Notes: generated from the sequence alone by a model not told the origin. A stretch of 35,736 nucleotides of DNA from an uncultured Campylobacterales bacterium (GCA_902727925.1 CACVAW010000024.1:1-35736), one strand, 5' to 3'; shown: positions 21,074 through 35,736, numbered from the stretch's first letter. Numbers and translations are program-made.

Positions 21074-22264
21074 TTAATACATAAATCCAAAAAGATATAA
21101 AGGTATTTTATTCCCAATACCAACTTCTATATTGTCACAAGCTAAAAAAGAATTAGGCAAGTCTCTTATTTGTTCATAAGACTTGTTCTTACCACCTACT
21201 TCTACAATATACTTATCATCAATTAAAAAATCCCCTTTATTAGGTATCTTTACACTATACTTATCTTGTAACTGATTTGCAAAAAATGTTTCTCTTATCG
21301 TTCCTATCTCTATCTTTTTCGAATAAGTATAATTCAAATTAGAATTATTAAGATATATTTTCTCAGGCTTTAAAAATATATTATCACCTTTATGTTTGCT
21401 TCTTAATATGTTAAATATCTTTGCCTTATTTAAATAATCCATATACAAATATAAAGTTTCTCTATCAATCCCAATTTTTGAACTTAACTCTTTCATATTT
21501 AACTTATATGGCTTTGACTCACAAATAAGCTTCGTTAACTTTTTTAAGTTCACTATATTCTCATATTTGATTTTAAATATTGATGGAATATCTACTTCAA
21601 TAACCGTACTAATAGTCTCTTGTAGTTTCAAACCATATGTTCTCTTATTTTCAAAATAAAATGGATAAAACCCAGATTTTAGATACTCTTGCCAATGCTC
21701 AAGTGGCTTAATCTCTTTTAATATCTCATAGCTAATATCCAAATGATTTTCTAATATATCCTCAAGACTATAAGTCCTAAGCGAAATCCCTAGTTTTATC
21801 TCTAAAAACTCCTTATATGAAAGACCATTTACACGGTACAAAAAAGCCCTACGACTAAGGTCGACTTTAGAATGTTCTAACTGCAAAGCAGATGAACCAG
21901 AGAATATCACCTTCAAATCAAACATATCATAAATCTGTTTTAACTCAATCTCAAAGTTTTTATACTTGTGTATCTCATCAATAACCAGAACCTTTCCCCC
22001 AAAACCTGAAAACTCTCTAGCAACTTCAACCAAAGAAAAGTTGGTAAAATCAAGACTATCTGCACTGATATATAGTTTTTGTTTTAAAGGCCAGTCTAAA
22101 TTCTCTAAATACTGTAATAAATATGTAGTTTTTCCCACTCCTCTAGCTCCAATAATCCCTATTAGCTTATCATCATGATCTATTAAGTCCCATAAATAAC
22201 GTTTATATGTAGACTTTTGATTACTAAGATACTGAATAAAATTACTATGAGCTATATCAAACAT
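21074..22264 (-). CDS. AAA-family ATPase with DUF4143-like C-terminal domain
   Basis: IGARGVGKTTYLLQYL (Walker A), VLVIDEIHKYKNFE (Walker B), C-terminal restriction-like region DYLIDDKYIVEVGGKNKSYEQI. Confidence 0.85.
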   Translation of the reverse strand: MFDIAHSNFIQYLSNQKSTYKRYLWDLIDHDDKLIGIIGARGVGKTTYLLQYLENLDWPLKQKLYISADSLDFTNFSLVEVAREFSGFGGKVLVIDEIHKYKNFEIELKQIYDMFDLKVIFSGSSALQLEHSKVDLSRRAFLYRVNGLSYKEFLEIKLGISLRTYSLEDILENHLDISYEILKEIKPLEHWQEYLKSGFYPFYFENKRTYGLKLQETISTVIEVDIPSIFKIKYENIVNLKKLTKLICESKPYKLNMKELSSKIGIDRETLYLYMDYLNKAKIFNILRSKHKGDNIFLKPEKIYLNNSNLNYTYSKKIEIGTIRETFFANQLQDKYSVKIPNKGDFLIDDKYIVEVGGKNKSYEQIRDLPNSFLACDNIEVGIGNKIPLYLFGFMY

Positions 22265-26422: not shown

Positions 26423-26509
26423 TGTAGGCATCCCATTAAGTAGGACAACTTAAAACAGAATAATTGCTTACTTGAATTTTTCAATATTAGAATATATCTG
26501 TCCAGTTTT
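26423..26509. mobile_element. IS3-like terminus remnant, left boundary of the island
   Basis: TGTAGGCATCCCATTAAGTAGGACA resembles IS3/IS150-type ends (TG...CCCAATAAGTTGGACA); followed by a ~45 bp segment repeated at 35199-35243. Confidence 0.5.
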
Positions 26510-26531
26510 TTTTTTGGGGGGGGGGATTTCA

Positions 26532-29024
26532 TTATCTTGTAATCACACCATAATCTTTAAACTCAAATGTATGTACATTATCTTTACCAAATTTATTCAA
26601 CATAAAATTATAAATTCTATCATCATGAGTTGAAATAAAAAACTGTTTATCTGTTTGTTCCTGAATTGAACGAATTAAATCTACAAAAGAATGTATGTTT
26701 ATATCATCCATATTTTGAATTGGGTCATCTAAAAATATAGAATCTAGTTCACTCCATTGTTGTTTAATTGCAAAACTTAAAAATATACTTAGTGCCAGTA
26801 CATTATTTTGTGCCGAACTAAATATATATGAAGGACTATGTTTTTTCTGCATATCTGACATCACTTCAAAAATCAATCTATTACCTAAAGTTGGATTATT
26901 TTGTATTCTTATACTTAACTCTTTCATATATACACTAGGATTTAAATAATAGTAAAACTTTTTGATAGTTTCTTCGTAATTAGATAATAGTGTTTTTGTT
27001 TTATCATCAATTGTAGTTTTAATTGCACTTTTTAAGTTGTCATAATCATTATTAATATTTGATAGCAACACAACTTCTTCTTCTAGCTTTTTAACTTTTT
27101 CAGTTAATTCATCAATTAATTCAAGTTGTTTATTATTTTTAAAATATTCAATTAATGAAGTTGTTAACTCAATAATTCTTTTACTTCTAAGAAGTCCACT
27201 GTTATTCTTTTCTAAGATAGAATTTTCATTTCTGAATTTCTCTTCTAACTCATTTATGGTTTCAAATTTAAGTTTTTCTTTTTCTTGACTATAATATTCA
27301 AAATTTTTATAATTTAAATTCAGTATTCTTGACTTTTTTTCAAATAAATCTTGATAATATTTTAAAGATAAACTACTCTTATATTCTTTATGTTTTTCAA
27401 CTTCTTGAATAAAGGTAATATATTTTTTATCAAAACCATCTATACTGACTTTAAGTATCTCTAAATTATCCACTACAATGTTATTAGATTCTTTTAAAAT
27501 ATCAAAATCAATACTTTCTTTCAACAAAGCACTATATTCTTCATCTAAATCTGTACTTATTTTTTTAATAGTTTTTATAATATCAAGTGACTGATTTCTA
27601 AATAACTCTTGTAGTTCATCTTCTTTTTTTTCAAGTTCATCAATTGAATTATTAATAGAATTAAAGCCTTCGTTTACAAGGTCACTTTCAAGTTTTTCTT
27701 TTAAAAATATTTTAGTCTTATTGATATCAAATTTATTTTCACAAATAGGACAACTATCTAAATTATTATTTTCATCTTGAAGTAAAAACTCTTCAGCTGA
27801 TTTATACATCATTTGTTTCATTGTTAAAAGATTAGCTAAACTATCTCTTAAAAGCTCAATTGATTCTTGAATAGCTATTATTTCTTTCTTTGTTCTAAGA
27901 TAACTTACTTTTTTCTCTAAATATTCTTTTTTATATTCAATTAATGCACTGATTGTATTTTCAAAACCTGCATTTTCTTGGAATAAAATACTTGTCTTTT
28001 TAAAATAACTAATTTCATTAAGTCTTTTATCTAATTTAACTATATTATCTTTTTTTTCTAAATATAAAAAATAATTCTTTAGATTACTTTTTACCTGTTC
28101 ATAAATTTCTTTTTTTGAAAACATAATAATAAAATTTTTTAAAGATTTAAATTCAGCATACTCTTTCGTGTAATTTTTAATCTCCTTTTCTTTATCATTA
28201 TAGTTTTCTAGTAGGTAAGTCATTAGCTTAATTTTATTTTTGATACTTAACTCATTATTTTCAAGGTTTTTTCTATCAATAAAAGCTTTATTTCTTATTT
28301 TATCAAGTTTATTAAAATCTACTTTATTTTTATACAATCTTTCAAGCTCTTCATGCTCTAATTTAGGATTGTTTTGTAAATTTTGTAGTTTAGCTTCTTC
28401 AATATTTAAGATATTTTTTTCCTTGACCAACTCATCAGATAATCTAATAGTTTCATCATTCAAAATTTTCTTAGTATTTTTTATATGTTCATCATATGCT
28501 TTATGCGTTTTAAGTCCAAACAAACTTACTATTGCTTTATACCTATCAGGATCTTTTGTTTGTCTGATAAAATTACTAATAAGTTCTTGTGAAAGAAGTT
28601 GTGTAAAATTAAAGCTTTTTTCAAAACTAATCTCATTAGAAAAGCCATCTTTAACTAAAATATTATTTAAAGAGCTCTCTCTATTTCCATTTAGTGTGAG
28701 GATTCCATTTCCATAATCATTCTTTTTTTTTTGAGGAATAGATCGTTTGACTGTTTGACCATTATCAAATTTAATTTGTACGCCATCATTGACATTTATC
28801 TTACAAAATGAATTTCTTAACAAAGGATAATCATTTCTCTCTTTTGCAGAATCATGGTATCTTTCTAGCTTACCTGTTAATCCCCATTCAATTCCATCAA
28901 AAAATGAAGTTTTTCCAAAACCATTTCGTCCATAAAATAAAATAATATTTTTGTCACTTGGAATATCAAATCTTTCTTGTTTATATGCTCTAAAACTATT
29001 AAACTGAATCTGCTCTATTTTCAC
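26532..29024 (-). CDS. Rad50/SMC-like ABC ATPase with zinc hook; candidate ATPase of an ABC-3C-type system
   Basis: Walker A FYGRNGFGKTSFFDGIEWGLTG, coiled coils around SCPICENKF, signature-like SSAQNNVLALSIFLSFAI, Walker B/D-loop SIFLDDPIQNMDDIN, H-loop STHDD. Confidence 0.88.
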   Translation of the reverse strand: MKIEQIQFNSFRAYKQERFDIPSDKNIILFYGRNGFGKTSFFDGIEWGLTGKLERYHDSAKERNDYPLLRNSFCKINVNDGVQIKFDNGQTVKRSIPQKKKNDYGNGILTLNGNRESSLNNILVKDGFSNEISFEKSFNFTQLLSQELISNFIRQTKDPDRYKAIVSLFGLKTHKAYDEHIKNTKKILNDETIRLSDELVKEKNILNIEEAKLQNLQNNPKLEHEELERLYKNKVDFNKLDKIRNKAFIDRKNLENNELSIKNKIKLMTYLLENYNDKEKEIKNYTKEYAEFKSLKNFIIMFSKKEIYEQVKSNLKNYFLYLEKKDNIVKLDKRLNEISYFKKTSILFQENAGFENTISALIEYKKEYLEKKVSYLRTKKEIIAIQESIELLRDSLANLLTMKQMMYKSAEEFLLQDENNNLDSCPICENKFDINKTKIFLKEKLESDLVNEGFNSINNSIDELEKKEDELQELFRNQSLDIIKTIKKISTDLDEEYSALLKESIDFDILKESNNIVVDNLEILKVSIDGFDKKYITFIQEVEKHKEYKSSLSLKYYQDLFEKKSRILNLNYKNFEYYSQEKEKLKFETINELEEKFRNENSILEKNNSGLLRSKRIIELTTSLIEYFKNNKQLELIDELTEKVKKLEEEVVLLSNINNDYDNLKSAIKTTIDDKTKTLLSNYEETIKKFYYYLNPSVYMKELSIRIQNNPTLGNRLIFEVMSDMQKKHSPSYIFSSAQNNVLALSIFLSFAIKQQWSELDSIFLDDPIQNMDDINIHSFVDLIRSIQEQTDKQFFISTHDDRIYNFMLNKFGKDNVHTFEFKDYGVITR

Positions 29025-29604
29025 TTTGATACTCCTCTTTCAATGTATTTATAAAGCTTTTTATTTCATGTTCTTCAATTTTATTTTTAATATCAATAGA
29101 TGTTAAAAATTTATTTGCGAGTTGTCGTTTATTTGTTTTTTCATATATACTATGCTTAATAATATTTTCATCAGAACTAATAGCTTCAGAAATTGAAAAA
29201 TCAAAATGAGAGAATAATGGTATTTGTTTTACGATCACATCTTTTACATTTTCATTATTATTTATATCATCTACTTTTAATACATATTTTTTACAGCAAA
29301 ATTTATTAGATTCAATTTGATTTATAAAATCTTCCTTTATCTCTATATTCTTAGGAATAATAAATAAAAGATATATATTCCAAATTAGTTTATTAGGCAA
29401 TTCAAACTGTTCTAAGTCTGATTGGATATGTCCAGCAATGAATTTTTGAACATCTTTCCATTCTTTTTCTAGTTCTACTATTGTTTCAATTGACTTTAAA
29501 GCTATAATATTGTTTTCTGAGTTAAAAACAATAGGCTTAAGCTTTTGTTCATTTTTTGATAGTTTGAGTAGACTTAAATCTAACTCCTCATAATTATCTA
29601 ACAT
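28999..29604 (-). CDS. hypothetical protein, possible ABC-three-component middle component
   Basis: Overlaps the ATPase start by 26 bp; KLIWNIYLLFIIPKN...QIESNKFCCKKYVLKV resembles ABC-3C middle component 1 as remembered, not searched. Confidence 0.55.
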   Translation of the reverse strand: MLDNYEELDLSLLKLSKNEQKLKPIVFNSENNIIALKSIETIVELEKEWKDVQKFIAGHIQSDLEQFELPNKLIWNIYLLFIIPKNIEIKEDFINQIESNKFCCKKYVLKVDDINNNENVKDVIVKQIPLFSHFDFSISEAISSDENIIKHSIYEKTNKRQLANKFLTSIDIKNKIEEHEIKSFINTLKEEYQSENRADSV

Positions 29605-29616
29605 TTTTCATTTTCC

Positions 29617-30354
29617 TTAAAATATTTTTTTTGCATTATTTAAATTATTAAAATTTGTAACACAATTACCACATTTAAAATTTAAATTATTACTTTTTTT
29701 TAGATTCATAAAATCATTTGCTTGTGATTCTTCATCAAAAATTATTCCCGTATTTTTACTAAAAAAGCTTGAGAGTATTTTTGATAATTTATTTTGTATA
29801 TTTAGCTCTCCTGTTTGACATGAGTTACAGGTTAGTCCACCATTATTCATCAATTGACAAATAAATACTGTACCATTAGAAATATTATATATTTGATTAG
29901 TTGTAATAAAGTCGGCTATTGAACCAATTTGCATTCCCAAACTCACTTCAGAAGTTTTTGCAGAATTAAAAAGCCAATTATCAATTTTTTTAATAGTTAC
30001 CTTATTATTATTTTTATGGGGTAAAGAAGTAATGTTATCTACTATTTTACCAATTATGTAAAAATGTATAATTTTATTAATACTAATACCATTTGATACT
30101 TCATTTTTATCTATATCACAGTTTATTTGTTGCAATAAGTTATTTACATCTATATCATCAAGAATATGTTCTTGAATCTCATTCAATGAATTAAGCATGT
30201 TTCTTCTTAGAGTAGTATCAGAAGTAAAATTACTTTGTAAATCAGTACGAATATCAACTATTTGCTCATCCCAAATTTCTTTCAAAGTTCTTCTAGTTGA
30301 TACATTTATTGTACTATGATCTAAATCATTGTCACTTATAATAACTTCTGTCAT
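29617..30354 (-). CDS. hypothetical protein with two CxxC motifs (putative zinc-binding)
   Basis: GGLTCNSCQTGE ... NFKCGNCVTNF; ATG overlaps the previous stop (TAATG). Confidence 0.65.
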   Translation of the reverse strand: MTEVIISDNDLDHSTINVSTRRTLKEIWDEQIVDIRTDLQSNFTSDTTLRRNMLNSLNEIQEHILDDIDVNNLLQQINCDIDKNEVSNGISINKIIHFYIIGKIVDNITSLPHKNNNKVTIKKIDNWLFNSAKTSEVSLGMQIGSIADFITTNQIYNISNGTVFICQLMNNGGLTCNSCQTGELNIQNKLSKILSSFFSKNTGIIFDEESQANDFMNLKKSNNLNFKCGNCVTNFNNLNNAKKIF

Positions 30355-30650
30355 TAGCTAACCTTAATTGTTGAACTTGTTAACCTATTTTCTTCAACTT
30401 GGGTACCTTTAACTACATCAATTTCACTATCTTTAAGAACATTTTTCCTAATTTGAGTTACTTCTTTTTCTACTTTTTGTAATTCAACTTTTGTTTTATT
30501 CTCAACTTCTGAAACTCTCTCATCAATTCTCTTATTTTCATAATTTATATATTTTTTAAATATAGCATATATTATAAAAATGGCAACAAGTGTAATTATT
30601 GCACCTTCTCCTAATCTATCCCATGGAATACTCTCAATTAATTTACCCAT
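30354..30650 (-). CDS. small single-TM / coiled-coil protein
   Basis: EGAIITLVAIFIIYAIFKKY TM helix then charged coiled coil; 12 nt after sbcC, coupled to the next gene. Confidence 0.65.
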   Translation of the reverse strand: MGKLIESIPWDRLGEGAIITLVAIFIIYAIFKKYINYENKRIDERVSEVENKTKVELQKVEKEVTQIRKNVLKDSEIDVVKGTQVEENRLTSSTIKVS

Positions 30651-30662
30651 CCTTAACTCCTT

Positions 30663-33600
30663 CTAATTTAAATTTAATTCACTCGTCCCATCACCCTTAG
30701 GAACAACTTTTATTTGCAATGGTATTCTTTCTTTCAGAGCCTCTACATGAGAAATCACACCGACCATTTTTCCGCTACTTTGAAGTAAGTTTAGAGCATT
30801 TAGTGCTGTTTCTAAGCTATCCTCATCTAGTGTTCCAAATCCTTCATCTAAGAAGAGTGAATCTATAGCAATTTTCTGGCTAGCAAGCTCTGAGAGTCCG
30901 AGAGCAAGGGCTAGACTTACTATGAAGCTTTCTCCACCAGAAAGTGTGCTTACAGGTCTTATAGTATTTCCTTGGAAGCTGTCTATTACTTCTATTTCTA
31001 GTAGCTGTTCAGTACTTCTTTGTAGCTCATACCTACTTGATAGTACACTCAAGTGATTGTTTGCTAGGCTTATTAATTGGTCTAGTGTGATACCTTGAGC
31101 AAATTTGGCAAATTTATCACCTTGGCTTGAACCTATCATTTCGTTTAGTTTTATCCATACGCTAAAGGTTTCTTTTTTCTTTTCAAGTTTGTTTATCTTA
31201 TCTTCGTGTTTTTTGATATTTGAAGCATTTATTTCTAGTTCTTTTTCTAAACTTCCTATTGATTTTTGTAGTTCATCTATATTTAATTGAAGCTCTTTTA
31301 GTTCAGTATTTATATCTTCTAGTTCTCTATCTGTTAGATTTAATTCTTTTTGTTCTTTTAGCTTTTTTGTTGTATCTGTTTTAAGTGTTTGGATTCTTGT
31401 ATATTTTTCTTCAATAGCTTTGCAAGTTCTAGTTAGCTCTTCTCTTTTAGTACTAGATACTAAAGCTTTTTCAAATTCTTCACATGAGCTAAAGCTATTG
31501 TCTTTTAGTGCTTTTTCAAATGATATATTTAGCTCTTCTAGTTCTGTACTGTTTTGAGTTTGTATTTGTTTTAGTTCTTTTACTTGAATATTTAATGAGT
31601 CATTTTCTGAGTTTTTTTGAGCTAATTCTTTTTCACAACTGTTATAACTATCTTGTATGCTCTTAAAGTTATGGTTTATAGTTTTTTCATACTCTTTTAT
31701 ATCATCAATATCTAATATAGTTTTACTTTTTTGCTCTAACTTCTCTATTTCTTTGTTTAAACCTTTTAGCTCTATTTTATACTCTTCTTGAAGTTTTAGA
31801 GTGTTTTTTACTTTTATATCGATTTGAAGTATATCTGCATACTCTTTTTGGATTTTCTCTTTTTCTAAAGATAATTTTTCTTTTTGATCTCTCAAGCTTA
31901 TTATCTCTTGTAGTTTTCTTTGAGCTTCTTGTTTATCCTTAGCTAAGATAAGTTTTGAGTTATCTTCTAAAGTGAGTTTATTGTTTAAGAAAAACTCATC
32001 TAGGGATAAAATCTTTTGTTCTTGTTTTTCTAGTGCTAAAGTACTAGATTCTAGTTCTGAGTTTAGTTTAGCTAGGTTTATCTGAGCTGTTTTTTGTTCT
32101 GTTGTTTCATATGATAGTAGTTCTTCTTGCTCTTGAATTTGTTTTGTTGTTTCATCTATATTTATCTCTAAAGTATGAGTGATATAAGGATGTGAAATCG
32201 AACCACATAGATAACACTCTTCACCCTCTTTTAGTTTAGCTCTGTCACTTTCATAGTTTTTAAGTAGTAGTTCTCTTTCTCTTATGGCTTTTTTCGCTTG
32301 TAGGGTTTCTTCTATTTGTTTTAGAAGTTTTGTTTTCTCTTCATTTATTTTGTTTTGTGTACTTATATCTTTATTTATATCTTCTAGGAGTTTTTTCTCT
32401 TTGTTTATATCTTCTAAAATTTTTTCATACTCTACTATAGACCTAGTAAGCTCTTGTATATCGTTTATTTGGCTTCTTATGTTTTCTTCATTTAGGTTTA
32501 TATTTGAGCTTTTTTCTTTTAAGAGTTTATATTCCTCTTCTTTTGTCTCACTTTGTTCTTTTAAGTTTTTTATTTCTAGATTTTGTTTTTTTATTTCTTT
32601 ACTTATGAGACTTTCATCTTCTAAAATAGATTCAATATCTAAAGATAAAAAAATTGAAAGATTATGCTTTTGTTTTAGTAATTTTGAGTCTAGTTCCCTT
32701 GTTTGTACTTGTTTTGCTCTTTTTTGACTTTGTATTTCTCTTAAGTCTTTTAATTTTATACTATTTTGCTCATATGATATTTTTTCTCTACTGTATTTAT
32801 CTTGTAGTAGCTTTGATTGATTTTGTTTTGATTCTAAAAGCTCTTGTAGTTCAATACTTTGTTTTCCAAAAAGTTCTAGTTTTTGTTTATCTTTACTAAT
32901 TCTTTGATTTAGTAGGTTTTTTTCTTGATATATTGCTTGTACATTTAAAGCTTTATTTGAAAGTTCAAGACTCATAAACTCTTCTTTTTTATCTTCTTTT
33001 TCTTTTGATATTAGCTCAAACTCTTCATGGTACTTGACACTATCTATCTCTAATTTTTGTAAGTTTTCGAGCCATAGTGATGTCTTTTTTGAAAATTCTT
33101 CTTTTTTATCTAGTCCTTTTTTTTGAACTTTGAAAGTCTCTAAATTTTGGTTTTTCTTTTCTACTACTGCTTTTTCAAGTAAGTCTATATTTCCTAAAGA
33201 TAGTTCTTCATCTTCTATAGCTCTTTTTTTAAGTATATAGGTGTCATATATCTCTTTTGATATTTGTTTATAAATCCCCGTACCCGTGATTTTTTCAAGT
33301 AAAGTGGACCTATCTGATTCTTTTGCTTTTAAAAATGCATCAAAACTTCCTTGGGCTAACATCATCGACTGAATAAATCTATCGAAGTCTAAACCTGATA
33401 ATTCTTCTACATACTTAGGTACATCTGTTACTGTAGATTTTATCACTTTAGATGATTCTACATCAGCTAGTTCCATTTTGGCACTTTGGAATTTGCCATC
33501 AGCTGACTTTCTAGCTCTTTTTTGAGTCCATGAAGATCTATATATGATACCCTTTATTTCAAACTCTACTTCACAATAACACTCACCAGTATGCCTAGAC

Positions 33601-33803
33601 ATAATCTCACTTGGTGGTTTTTTAAGTCTTGGAGTTCTTCCATATAATGCACAGGTGATAATGTCTAGTATAGTACTTTTACCAGAACCAGTAGGCCCTG
33701 TAATCGCAAATAGGGCATTATCATTTAGAAATGTACGAAAATCTATCTCGAATTCACCCTTTAATGAGTTGATATTCAATGATTTTACTTTTAATATTTT
33801 CAT
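30663..33803 (-). CDS. sbcC: exonuclease SbcCD subunit C (Rad50-like)
   Basis: ITGPTGSGKSTILDII, zinc hook ECYLCGSISHPY, STLSGGESFIVSLALALGLS, DSLFLDEGFGTLD. Confidence 0.95.
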   Translation of the reverse strand: MKILKVKSLNINSLKGEFEIDFRTFLNDNALFAITGPTGSGKSTILDIITCALYGRTPRLKKPPSEIMSRHTGECYCEVEFEIKGIIYRSSWTQKRARKSADGKFQSAKMELADVESSKVIKSTVTDVPKYVEELSGLDFDRFIQSMMLAQGSFDAFLKAKESDRSTLLEKITGTGIYKQISKEIYDTYILKKRAIEDEELSLGNIDLLEKAVVEKKNQNLETFKVQKKGLDKKEEFSKKTSLWLENLQKLEIDSVKYHEEFELISKEKEDKKEEFMSLELSNKALNVQAIYQEKNLLNQRISKDKQKLELFGKQSIELQELLESKQNQSKLLQDKYSREKISYEQNSIKLKDLREIQSQKRAKQVQTRELDSKLLKQKHNLSIFLSLDIESILEDESLISKEIKKQNLEIKNLKEQSETKEEEYKLLKEKSSNINLNEENIRSQINDIQELTRSIVEYEKILEDINKEKKLLEDINKDISTQNKINEEKTKLLKQIEETLQAKKAIRERELLLKNYESDRAKLKEGEECYLCGSISHPYITHTLEINIDETTKQIQEQEELLSYETTEQKTAQINLAKLNSELESSTLALEKQEQKILSLDEFFLNNKLTLEDNSKLILAKDKQEAQRKLQEIISLRDQKEKLSLEKEKIQKEYADILQIDIKVKNTLKLQEEYKIELKGLNKEIEKLEQKSKTILDIDDIKEYEKTINHNFKSIQDSYNSCEKELAQKNSENDSLNIQVKELKQIQTQNSTELEELNISFEKALKDNSFSSCEEFEKALVSSTKREELTRTCKAIEEKYTRIQTLKTDTTKKLKEQKELNLTDRELEDINTELKELQLNIDELQKSIGSLEKELEINASNIKKHEDKINKLEKKKETFSVWIKLNEMIGSSQGDKFAKFAQGITLDQLISLANNHLSVLSSRYELQRSTEQLLEIEVIDSFQGNTIRPVSTLSGGESFIVSLALALGLSELASQKIAIDSLFLDEGFGTLDEDSLETALNALNLLQSSGKMVGVISHVEALKERIPLQIKVVPKGDGTSELNLN

Positions 33804-34987
33804 TGAGTAGACACCTTCTCATAAATTTTTTTAAAACTTAGTGTTAGCTCTTCGACAAATTCTTTATCTTCTAGCTCCTCTATATCTAATCTTCTTGTAA
33901 ATACATCTGTAGGTGTAAGTTCATCTAGGCTAGTTACTTTTAACTCTTTTGCTTCTAGTTTCTTTTGGGTTTTATCTATCTTTATAGCTAAGATAATAAA
34001 TTCATTTTTGTCAGCATATTCTCTTATCTCCTGATTTGCAGACATTGGATTGTCATCATTAAGATGTATTTCAATCCATGTTGTTTTATCTTCAATTTTT
34101 TCTAGTTCTTTTAGTACTGATTCTAAATTACCTCTTAGGACTTGTAGTTTTCTTTTATTTGGTATTTCTATCTCTTTTACATTTACTTTTTCATTTTTGA
34201 ACTCAACAATATTAATTTTCTTTTTTTGATTTGCTTCTGAAAAACTAAGAGGAATGGGAGAACCACTATATCTCACATGGTTACATCCTACTATTTGATT
34301 TATATGAAGATGACCTAAAGCTACATAATCAAAATACTTGCCTAAAAAATCACTCCCAATATCAAGAGTACCACCTATATAGATATCTTTTTCACTTTCA
34401 CTTGTACGAGATCCTAGCGTTGTTAGATGTCCTGTAGCGATTATTGGGAGATTGTCTTTGGCAGTTAATTTAATAGCTTCTTTATATATGTCAATATAAT
34501 GTTGCTTTATTCCAGTATTTAAAGAAGATTCTTTTTCATTTGTAGTTTGGCCACTTACAGACTCTCGCACAATACTATCTCTTAAGAATGGAACAGCACA
34601 AACAACACCTTGAAGTTTATCTTTTTTATAAATAGGTATTAACTCATTTTCATCAACATCACCCGAAGTGATAACATATACATTCATAAACTCTAATAGT
34701 TGTTTTGGAGCTTTAAGAGTAGAAATTGAGTCATGATTTCCAGCAGTAATAATGACATATAAATTTTCTATTGCAAACAATTGTTTTAAAAAATTATAAT
34801 AAAGTTCTAAAGCATAATTGGGAGGATTACCTGTATCAAAAATATCCCCTGCAACTATAAGAACATCAATATTTTCTTTTTTGATTATCTCAGTAAGCCA
34901 AGACAAAAAAGCTTTATGTTCTTCAGCTCTACTTTTCCCCATAAACTTTTGACCGATATGCCAGTCAGATGTGTGTAATATTCTCAA
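33800..34987 (-). CDS. sbcD: exonuclease SbcCD subunit D (Mre11-like nuclease)
   Basis: HTSDWHIGQ, VAGDIFDTGNPP, TAGNHDS, ATGHLT, ALGHLHINQ; TTG start; 4-bp overlap with sbcC. Confidence 0.95.
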   Translation of the reverse strand: MRILHTSDWHIGQKFMGKSRAEEHKAFLSWLTEIIKKENIDVLIVAGDIFDTGNPPNYALELYYNFLKQLFAIENLYVIITAGNHDSISTLKAPKQLLEFMNVYVITSGDVDENELIPIYKKDKLQGVVCAVPFLRDSIVRESVSGQTTNEKESSLNTGIKQHYIDIYKEAIKLTAKDNLPIIATGHLTTLGSRTSESEKDIYIGGTLDIGSDFLGKYFDYVALGHLHINQIVGCNHVRYSGSPIPLSFSEANQKKKINIVEFKNEKVNVKEIEIPNKRKLQVLRGNLESVLKELEKIEDKTTWIEIHLNDDNPMSANQEIREYADKNEFIILAIKIDKTQKKLEAKELKVTSLDELTPTDVFTRRLDIEELEDKEFVEELTLSFKKIYEKVSTQ

Positions 34988-35018
34988 AATAATCCTATTT
35001 TTATTATTAGGATTATTA
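34988..35018 (-). promoter_or_regulatory. inverted repeat enclosing the sbcD SD, next to the start codon
   Basis: Minus strand AATAATCCTA-ATAATAAAAA-TAGGATTATT immediately before TTG; the 3' arm contains AGGA. Confidence 0.6.
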
Positions 35019-35198: not shown

Positions 35199-35243
35199 TT
35201 GCTTAGTTGAATTTTTAATGTTAGAATATATCTGTCCAGTTTT
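35199..35243. repeat. right copy of the ~45 bp direct repeat bracketing the island
   Basis: TTGCTTAGTTGAATTTTTAATGTTAGAATATATCTGTCCAGTTTT vs TTGCTTACTTGAATTTTTCAATATTAGAATATATCTGTCCAGTTTT near 26464. Confidence 0.8.
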
Positions 35244-35260
35244 ACAACAGGATTTAGTTC

Positions 35261-35610
35261 GCCAATTCGATAAATAAGTGCAATTTTTTTAAGAAGGAGA
35301 AAAGGGGAGGGTTAACCAAGAGTTAGCTATTCTTTTTTTCTACTACAAAGAAAGGAATTGGCATGAGATACAATCAGTTAACCTTGGGAGAAAGGTATCA
35401 TATAGAAGCTTTGATGAGACTTGGATACAAACAAATAGATATTGCCAAAGAGTTGGGCGTACATCCAAGTACAATAAGCAGAGAATTACAACGGAATAAA
35501 TTTAGAGGTAAATATAAACCTGTTCAAGCACAAGCAGAATATATTTTGAGGCAAAAGAAGAAACGAAAACGTTCATCTATAAGTACATCAATAGAGAGGT
35601 ATATAAGAGC
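35261..35610 (+). mobile_element. truncated IS30-family element (left end plus 5' part of the transposase)
   Basis: Transposase ORF at 35363 starts MRYNQLTLGERYHIEALMRLGYKQIDIAKELGVHPSTISRELQRN (IS30 HTH); cut at 35610 by the start of a second copy. Confidence 0.85.
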
Positions 35611-35736
35611 GCCAATTCGATAAATAAGTGCAATTTTTTTTAAGAAGGAGAAAAGGGGAGGGTTAACCAAGAGTTAGCTATTCTTTTTTTCTACTACAAA
35701 GAAAGGAATTGGCATGAGATACAATCAGTTAACCTT
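35611..35736 (+). mobile_element. start of a second IS30-family copy (runs off the window)
   Basis: GCCAATTCGATAAATAAGTGCAATTTTTTT... repeats 35261 onward with one extra T; transposase ATG at 35714. Confidence 0.85.

What the first reader, a model, noticed from the sequence alone, without database searches (positions are those of the whole stretch)
26532..34987. Six-gene SbcCD plus second Rad50-like ATPase operon: candidate undescribed defence/genome-surveillance system
Six minus-strand genes are packed with overlaps or very short gaps: sbcD/sbcC overlap 4 bp; sbcC to TM gene 12 nt; TM/CxxC genes share TAATG; 12 nt to the putative middle component; 26-bp overlap with the ATPase. Two different Rad50/SMC-like ATPases, each with its own zinc hook, sit in one unit with an Mre11-type nuclease and three small proteins of unknown function. 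ABC-3C and Lamassu systems combine a Rad50-like ATPase, a middle component and an effector. Here no obvious effector nuclease is fused, so SbcCD (nuclease) or the TM protein (membrane) could be the effector. That is inference. SbcCD alone is ordinary; the four-gene extension is the unusual part.
Basis: partly seen in the sequence, partly recalled or inferred. Interest (0 to 1): 0.85.

Follow-up and report, generated by a model that had tools for sequence, protein, structure and literature searches.

The report
Membrane-type Lamassu operon behind sbcCD
Six linked genes join an ordinary DNA-end nuclease (SbcCD) to a Lamassu-type self-destruct defence cassette with a small membrane protein where the toxic part should be; relatives show that the site behind sbcCD is a slot where very different anti-phage systems are swapped in and out, a link between a DNA-repair nuclease and bacterial immunity that I found described nowhere.

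Summary
The six genes are as described. The last four are not an unknown system: the ATPase is LmuB-like (PADLOC 2e-74) and its partner is ABC-3C middle component 1 (above Pfam cut-off), so the cassette is ABC-3C / type II Lamassu. The 245-aa CxxC protein is the adaptor part of the usual effector protein: its only close relative carries it fused to an Mrr/SMEK nuclease domain. Here that domain is missing, and a 98-aa single-helix membrane protein, translationally coupled to the adaptor, sits in the effector position. The sbcCD link is no accident. Eight of nine assessable MComp1 systems in Campylobacterales lie directly behind sbcCD, with two deeply different sbcCD types and several cassette lineages. 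In Arcobacteraceae, ~90% DNA identity runs to the sbcC stop, is lost through the cargo, and resumes at a DUF2779 start; the cargo is Lamassu, OLD, PDC-S06, Qat, SIR2-HerA or NACHT. Two loci keep the 3' tail of a displaced sbcC. SbcCD is therefore unlikely to be this cassette's effector; it is the constant head of a modular defence locus. Whether it also acts in defence is open. No experiment was done; the one structure prediction was unusable.

The parts
33800..34987 (-). sbcD, Mre11-type nuclease subunit (395 aa, TTG start); 5' constant gene of the module
   Evidence: TIGR00619 2.8e-67 over cut-off; motifs DWH, GDIFD, GNHD, GHLH
30663..33803 (-). sbcC, Rad50-type ATPase (1046 aa) with CYLC zinc hook and intact Walker B LDEGFG
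   Evidence: NF007600 1.3e-156 (below the curated cut-off), PF13558 over cut-off; motifs
30651..30662 (-). 12-nt junction sbcC/cargo holding the AAGGAG ribosome-binding site of the membrane-protein gene
   Evidence: sequence
30354..30650 (-). 98-aa membrane protein: one hydrophobic helix (residues 13-31) then a charged coiled-coil-like segment; occupies the effector position
   Evidence: hydropathy maximum 2.29 over 19 residues; TAATG coupling to the next gene; no homologue found
29617..30354 (-). 245-aa CxxC...CxxC adaptor, homologous to the C-terminal part of the L036 effector protein
   Evidence: 30% over 229 aa, 2.3e-23; all four cysteines conserved
28999..29604 (-). ABC-3C middle component 1 (LmuC-like), 201 aa
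   Evidence: PF20289 3.5e-12, 46.4 bits against cut-off 27.3; LmuC 9.6e-7
26532..29024 (-). LmuB-like Rad50-type ATPase (830 aa, GTG start), short coiled coil, CPIC hook, Walker B LDDPIQ
   Evidence: PADLOC LmuB 2e-74; PF13476 over cut-off; motifs
26464..26509 (+). 46-bp direct repeat, copy 1, just beyond the ATPase gene
   Evidence: 93% identical to copy 2, 1.5e-13
35199..35243 (+). 46-bp direct repeat, copy 2, upstream of sbcD; the two copies bracket the six-gene unit

Best explanation
An ABC-3C / type II Lamassu abortive-defence cassette with a split effector sits in a modular defence locus headed by sbcCD. Working model: LmuB (Rad50-like, short coiled coil, zinc hook) with middle component 1 senses abnormal DNA, such as ends or hairpins from plasmids or replicating phage. 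Activation frees the CxxC adaptor. In place of the fused nuclease or protease of its relatives, this adaptor assembles the co-translated 98-aa membrane protein, which damages the inner membrane and stops growth before phage or plasmid spreads. SbcCD is a working end/hairpin nuclease encoded in the same apparent operon; it is the constant part of the locus and the cassette is the replaceable part. Shown here by sequence: gene identities, adaptor homology, recurrence of the sbcCD link, cargo exchange at fixed borders, and a scar best read as sbcCD displacement with cargo kept. From the literature on related systems: effector release in Lamassu, activation by DNA structures. Inferred: membrane toxicity, co-transcription, and any functional help from SbcCD (most likely clearing the host's own hairpins and ends so that the alarm is not set off, or degrading invader DNA in its own right).
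For: LmuB and MComp1 matches. Adaptor homology to an Mrr/SMEK-fused effector. TM gene in the effector position with TAATG coupling; split effector also in Priestia. 8 of 9 assessable MComp1 loci behind sbcCD, with crossed pairings of cassette lineage and sbcCD type. Unrelated defence cargo at the same junction, sharp borders at the sbcC stop and DUF2779 start, scar of displaced sbcC. Lamassu effector release and DNA-structure triggers: PMC10586767, PMC12409362.
Against: No experiment. The membrane protein has no detectable homologue and the adaptor only one, so the pair cannot be tested by conservation. The adaptor matches no Pfam CTD model and its structure prediction failed (mean pLDDT 43.8). 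DUF2779, the other border, is missing in the window. Cargo that does not obviously sense DNA ends (Qat, SIR2-HerA, Thoeris-like) argues against one specific sensing partnership with SbcCD.
Confidence: 0.62

Rival explanations
1. Landing site only: sbcCD and DUF2779 are just conserved flanks for recombination and a convenient promoter; the Lamassu cassette works alone and SbcCD has no part in defence.
For: Cargo is very diverse; identity ends and resumes at the flanks as expected for homologous recombination; OLD-type genes sit there too, in 3 of 8 loci.
Against: sbcCD moves with the unit between plasmids and chromosomes and occurs as extra copies with other cargo; a second sbcCD type seems to have replaced the first with cargo kept. 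A mere flank need not be replaced by a functional counterpart.
Confidence: 0.45
2. SbcCD is the nuclease effector of the cassette: the LmuB-like complex recruits or unleashes SbcCD on DNA.
For: No nuclease domain in the four cassette genes; tight linkage.
Against: Related cassettes at the same site have their own effectors and still keep sbcCD; the same sbcCD precedes unrelated systems; closely related ABC-3C cassettes on plasmids work without adjacent sbcCD genes.
Confidence: 0.07
3. The 98-aa protein is a membrane anchor or regulator, not a toxin: it holds the complex at the inner membrane, where incoming DNA enters, and the effector is the adaptor itself or a host protein.
For: Only one hydrophobic helix and a long charged segment, which would suit an anchor as well as a pore; no toxin family match.
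Against: Its position is that of the effector gene in relatives; the adaptor has lost the enzymatic domain present in L036.
Confidence: 0.3
4. A decaying cassette that has lost its effector domain, with a chance small ORF in between.
For: The fused nuclease domain of L036 is absent; insertion-sequence remnants near sbcD and a broken DUF2779 elsewhere in the genome.
Against: All six frames are intact, with a strong ribosome-binding site, TAATG coupling and conserved ATPase motifs.
Confidence: 0.1

Closest known systems
Lamassu type II / ABC-three component (ABC-3C) systems, including DdmABC of Vibrio cholerae
   Same: Rad50/SMC-like ATPase (LmuB) and middle component in the same order, effector-side gene upstream, overlapping ATPase and middle-component genes, zinc hook, altered Walker B glutamate
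   Different: Effector protein is split; adaptor matches no Pfam CTD model; a single-helix membrane protein replaces the N-terminal enzyme; sbcCD directly upstream
L036 (G335) SMEK/Mrr-type ABC-3C cassette, the closest relative found
   Same: ATPase 42.5%, middle component 42%, adaptor 30% identity; also directly behind sbcCD
   Different: Adaptor fused to a SMEK/Mrr nuclease domain; no membrane protein; type-B sbcCD with a scar of type-A sbcC; DUF2779 fragment downstream
SbcCD (bacterial Mre11-Rad50)
   Same: sbcD and sbcC are intact, with all motifs checked
   Different: Encoded at the head of an apparent operon that continues into defence genes
Defence hotspots between conserved genes (e.g. 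core defence hotspots of Pseudomonas aeruginosa, E. coli defence islands, P2/P4 phage hotspots)
   Same: Constant flanks with interchangeable defence systems between them
   Different: One flank is sbcCD itself and the cargo starts within a few nucleotides of the sbcC stop; the whole unit occurs on plasmids and chromosomes; the sbcCD flank itself appears to have been exchanged for another type

Membership tests
ABC-3C / Lamassu type II | Rad50/SMC-like ATPase LmuB | tested here: met
   PADLOC LmuB 2e-74
ABC-3C / Lamassu type II | Middle component of a known class | tested here: met
   PF20289 MComp1 over the curated cut-off
ABC-3C / Lamassu type II | Third component with a recognised ABC-3C C-terminal domain | tested here: inconclusive
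   No Pfam CTD match; homologous to the C-terminal part of the third component of L036, which itself matches no CTD model
ABC-3C / Lamassu type II | Effector domain fused to the N-terminus of the third component | tested here: not met
   Adaptor stands alone. Not absolute for the family: the Priestia system named ABC-three component by NCBI is split as well
ABC-3C / Lamassu type II | Altered catalytic glutamate in Walker B | tested here: met
   LDDPIQ instead of LDE; the review reports Glu to Gln, here it is Asp (PMC10586767)
ABC-3C / Lamassu type II | Anti-phage or anti-plasmid activity | not testable with these tools
   needs an experiment
SbcCD | Mre11-type nuclease and Rad50-type ATPase in one operon with intact motifs | tested here: met
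sbcCD - cargo - DUF2779 defence slot | Defence cargo starting directly behind sbcC, same strand | tested here: met
   12-nt gap
sbcCD - cargo - DUF2779 defence slot | DUF2779 as downstream border in the window itself | tested here: not met
   No DUF2779 trace in the window; the genome's only copy is on another contig and broken by an IS30 element

The most novel reading that the evidence does not exclude
SbcCD (with DUF2779) is a working, constant component of a modular immune platform: a DNA-end and hairpin processing nuclease that gates or assists interchangeable downstream defence systems, of which a membrane-targeting Lamassu is one.
Probability: 0.3. Interest if true: 0.85.

Novelty: new variant of a known kind. 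Interest (0 to 1): 0.66.

Why it matters
Lamassu is thought to sense the kind of DNA ends and hairpins that SbcCD processes. Finding the two joined repeatedly, apparently with sbcCD replaced by another type while the cassette was kept, gives a natural system in which to ask whether a repair nuclease sets the threshold of immunity. It also gives a place to look: cargo behind sbcCD in Campylobacterota, where several open frames have no named function, is a source of candidate defence genes. The membrane protein would extend the list of Lamassu effectors beyond the enzymatic ones named in the review read here (PMC10586767).

Tried and rejected
(1) tblastn of the adaptor, TM protein and ATPase in plasmids and/or phages, and pattern scans of viral contigs: no homologue of adaptor or TM protein. 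(2) Two genome-contig scans: poor patterns; four distant loci, no sbcCD beside them by blastp. (3) CTD5 membership of the adaptor, suggested by the similar size and cysteines of the Priestia protein: not supported. (4) Adaptor profile in 400 genomes: the other hits match only the SMEK nuclease part. (5) AlphaFold of the adaptor from a single sequence: mean pLDDT 43.8, unusable, so no fold search was run. (6) Sequence search of solved structures: nothing for ATPase or middle component. (7) SbcCD as the cassette's effector: rejected (see rivals). (8) Promoter scan: hits about as frequent as in shuffles, no evidence either way. (9) Controls outside Campylobacterota stayed limited to plasmids and a few contigs, because the genome search accepts only genomes of this order as centre.

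Full report
WHAT IS THERE. The six minus-strand genes exist at the stated coordinates with the stated overlaps. sbcD and sbcC are intact and ordinary. The 830-aa ATPase is LmuB-like (PADLOC 2e-74); the 201-aa protein is ABC-3C middle component 1 (PF20289, 46.4 bits against a cut-off of 27.3). The cassette core is therefore ABC-3C, known experimentally as Lamassu type II or DdmABC (PMC10586767, PMC12409362). Walker B of the ATPase reads LDDPIQ, with Asp where SbcC has Glu. The review reports a Glu-to-Gln change in Lamassu and proposes slow ATP turnover; here the change is to Asp.

THE EFFECTOR PART. The 245-aa CxxC protein matches no Pfam CTD. Its one clear relative is the C-terminal part of a 431-aa protein in L036 (30% over 229 aa, 2.3e-23; all four cysteines kept). 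In L036 the N-terminal part is a SMEK domain (PF21941, 1.5e-24) related to the Mrr nuclease domain of a prokaryotic Argonaute (PDB 26bh, 1.4e-10). ATPase and middle component of L036 are also the closest relatives found (42.5% and 42%). So the window protein is the adaptor without the nuclease. Directly upstream, joined by TAATG, is a 98-aa protein with one strongly hydrophobic helix (residues 13-31, mean hydropathy 2.29) and a charged segment. Priestia shows that split effectors occur: an alpha/beta hydrolase gene, then a 246-aa CTD5 protein, then MC1 and ATPase. That the membrane protein is the effector is inference from position.

THE LINK TO SBCCD. Among 300 genomes of the order, six have MComp1; two family samples added four more loci above the cut-off. 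Of these ten loci, eight lie directly downstream of sbcCD on the same strand; L038 is cut by a contig end just upstream; L025 is elsewhere. Gaps from the sbcC stop to the next gene are 12, 11, 9, 119, 21, 16, 114 and -4 nt. In L024 the slot also holds a transposase inside the metallo-beta-lactamase gene. Two deeply different SbcCD types are involved. The ATPase tree pairs the window (type A) with L036 (type B), and L035 (A) with L023 (B), each 100/100, so the pairing arose more than once or the parts were exchanged; branches are long, and only these tight pairs are relied on. A naive binomial test gives about 1e-22, but the loci are related and the number should not be taken literally.

A DEFENCE SLOT. 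In a sample of 100 genomes not chosen for MComp1, 25 had an SbcD hit. Behind sbcC lie OLD (L042, L056), Gabija (L058), PDC-S06 (L040), a ThsB-like gene with a cyclase-like gene (L052) and a dGTPase (L057); most other loci have no recognised defence gene there. Second sbcCD copies carry Gabija (L059 in G119) and a reverse-transcriptase (DRT-type) system (L060 in G241). Named Arcobacteraceae plasmids carry sbcCD - cargo - DUF2779 with Qat (L075), SIR2-HerA (L076), a NACHT protein (L077) or PDC-S06 (L078, L079). Alignment to L078 shows 91-95% identical sbcCD up to within about 15 bases of the sbcC stop, no similarity through unlike cargo, and about 90% identity again from within about 15 bases of the DUF2779 start. 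The chromosomal Lamassu locus L021 and OLD locus L042 follow the same rule and share 4.9 kb with the plasmids, starting about 90 bp before sbcD; their matches end near the DUF2779 stop. L021 and L042 also share the genes beyond DUF2779, so there the cargo differs at one chromosomal site. Cargo is thus exchanged within the unit, and the unit itself is found on plasmids and chromosomes.

A SCAR. In L022 and L036 the 114 and 119 bp between type-B sbcC and the Lamassu cassette are the 3' end of a type-A sbcC (93% over 86 bp, 4e-35, and 87.5% over 80 bp). No other type-B locus examined has it. The simplest account is that a type-B sbcCD displaced a type-A sbcCD while the cargo stayed. This is the best evidence that an sbcCD is kept there for a reason, though recombination between modules without selection could do the same.

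THE WINDOW AS AN INSTANCE. The window has no DUF2779 downstream, but a 46-bp direct repeat (93%) brackets the whole six-gene unit (26464-26509 and 35199-35243), which suggests that it also moved as a block. The genome's only DUF2779 match lies on another contig, its N-terminal part replaced by IS30 sequence.

LIMITS. Relatives come from one order, so nothing is claimed for other phyla; plasmid ABC-3C systems outside the order lack adjacent sbcCD, as plasmids usually would. OLD-type genes are at sbcCD in 3 of 8 loci against 8 of 9 for MComp1 (Fisher p = 0.05), so a Lamassu preference is only suggested. Contig ends affect some loci. The library of papers holds no account of a link between sbcCD and Lamassu or of this slot that my searches could find, but subscription papers and preprints are missing, among them the 2020 ABC-ATPase survey that defined ABC-3C (known to me from memory) and the 2025 Lamassu structure papers; the plasmid paper PMC6690266 lists SbcCD, DUF2779 and dGTPase without a defence reading in the passage read. 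No experiment and no usable structure model support the mechanism.

Noticed in passing
window 26507-26526: A run of T followed by a run of about ten G just beyond the ATPase stop; could be a phase-variable tract or an assembly fault. It lies outside the frame.
   Followed up: no
window 35260-35736: Start of an IS30-type transposase, and a 104-bp stretch repeated at 35260-35362 and 35610-35713 at the contig end: an insertion-sequence end or an assembly artefact.
   Followed up: partly
window 34988-35017: Perfect 10-bp inverted repeat with a 10-base spacer directly before the sbcD start (4 of 200 shuffles reach its score); possible operator. Not seen upstream of other sbcD genes, though several Arcobacteraceae ones share a repeated AATGTGACA motif.
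   Followed up: partly
L068:8951-10558 (own genome, contig C26): IS30 transposase sequence joined in frame to the C-terminal 286 residues of a DUF2779 protein: the genome's only DUF2779 gene is broken.
   Followed up: partly
L025:9761-12106: The one MComp1 system not at sbcCD has its ATPase split into two frames (162 and 550 aa), so it may be a pseudogene.
   Followed up: no
L024:5705-8417: Metallo-beta-lactamase gene split by a 450-aa transposase-like gene inside the sbcCD-Lamassu unit.
   Followed up: no
L023:3403-4002: Cap15, a CBASS membrane effector (PF18153 5e-36), a few genes beyond the Lamassu cassette and DUF2779.
   Followed up: no
L059:16790-17866, L042:10907-11983, L053:7554-8258: Cargo genes in the sbcCD slot with no or only weak family matches; candidates for undescribed defence genes.
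   Followed up: no
window 21074-22264 and L068:7260-8465: Two similar-looking P-loop ATPases (396 and 401 aa) in the same genome, one in the window and one beside the broken DUF2779.
   Followed up: no
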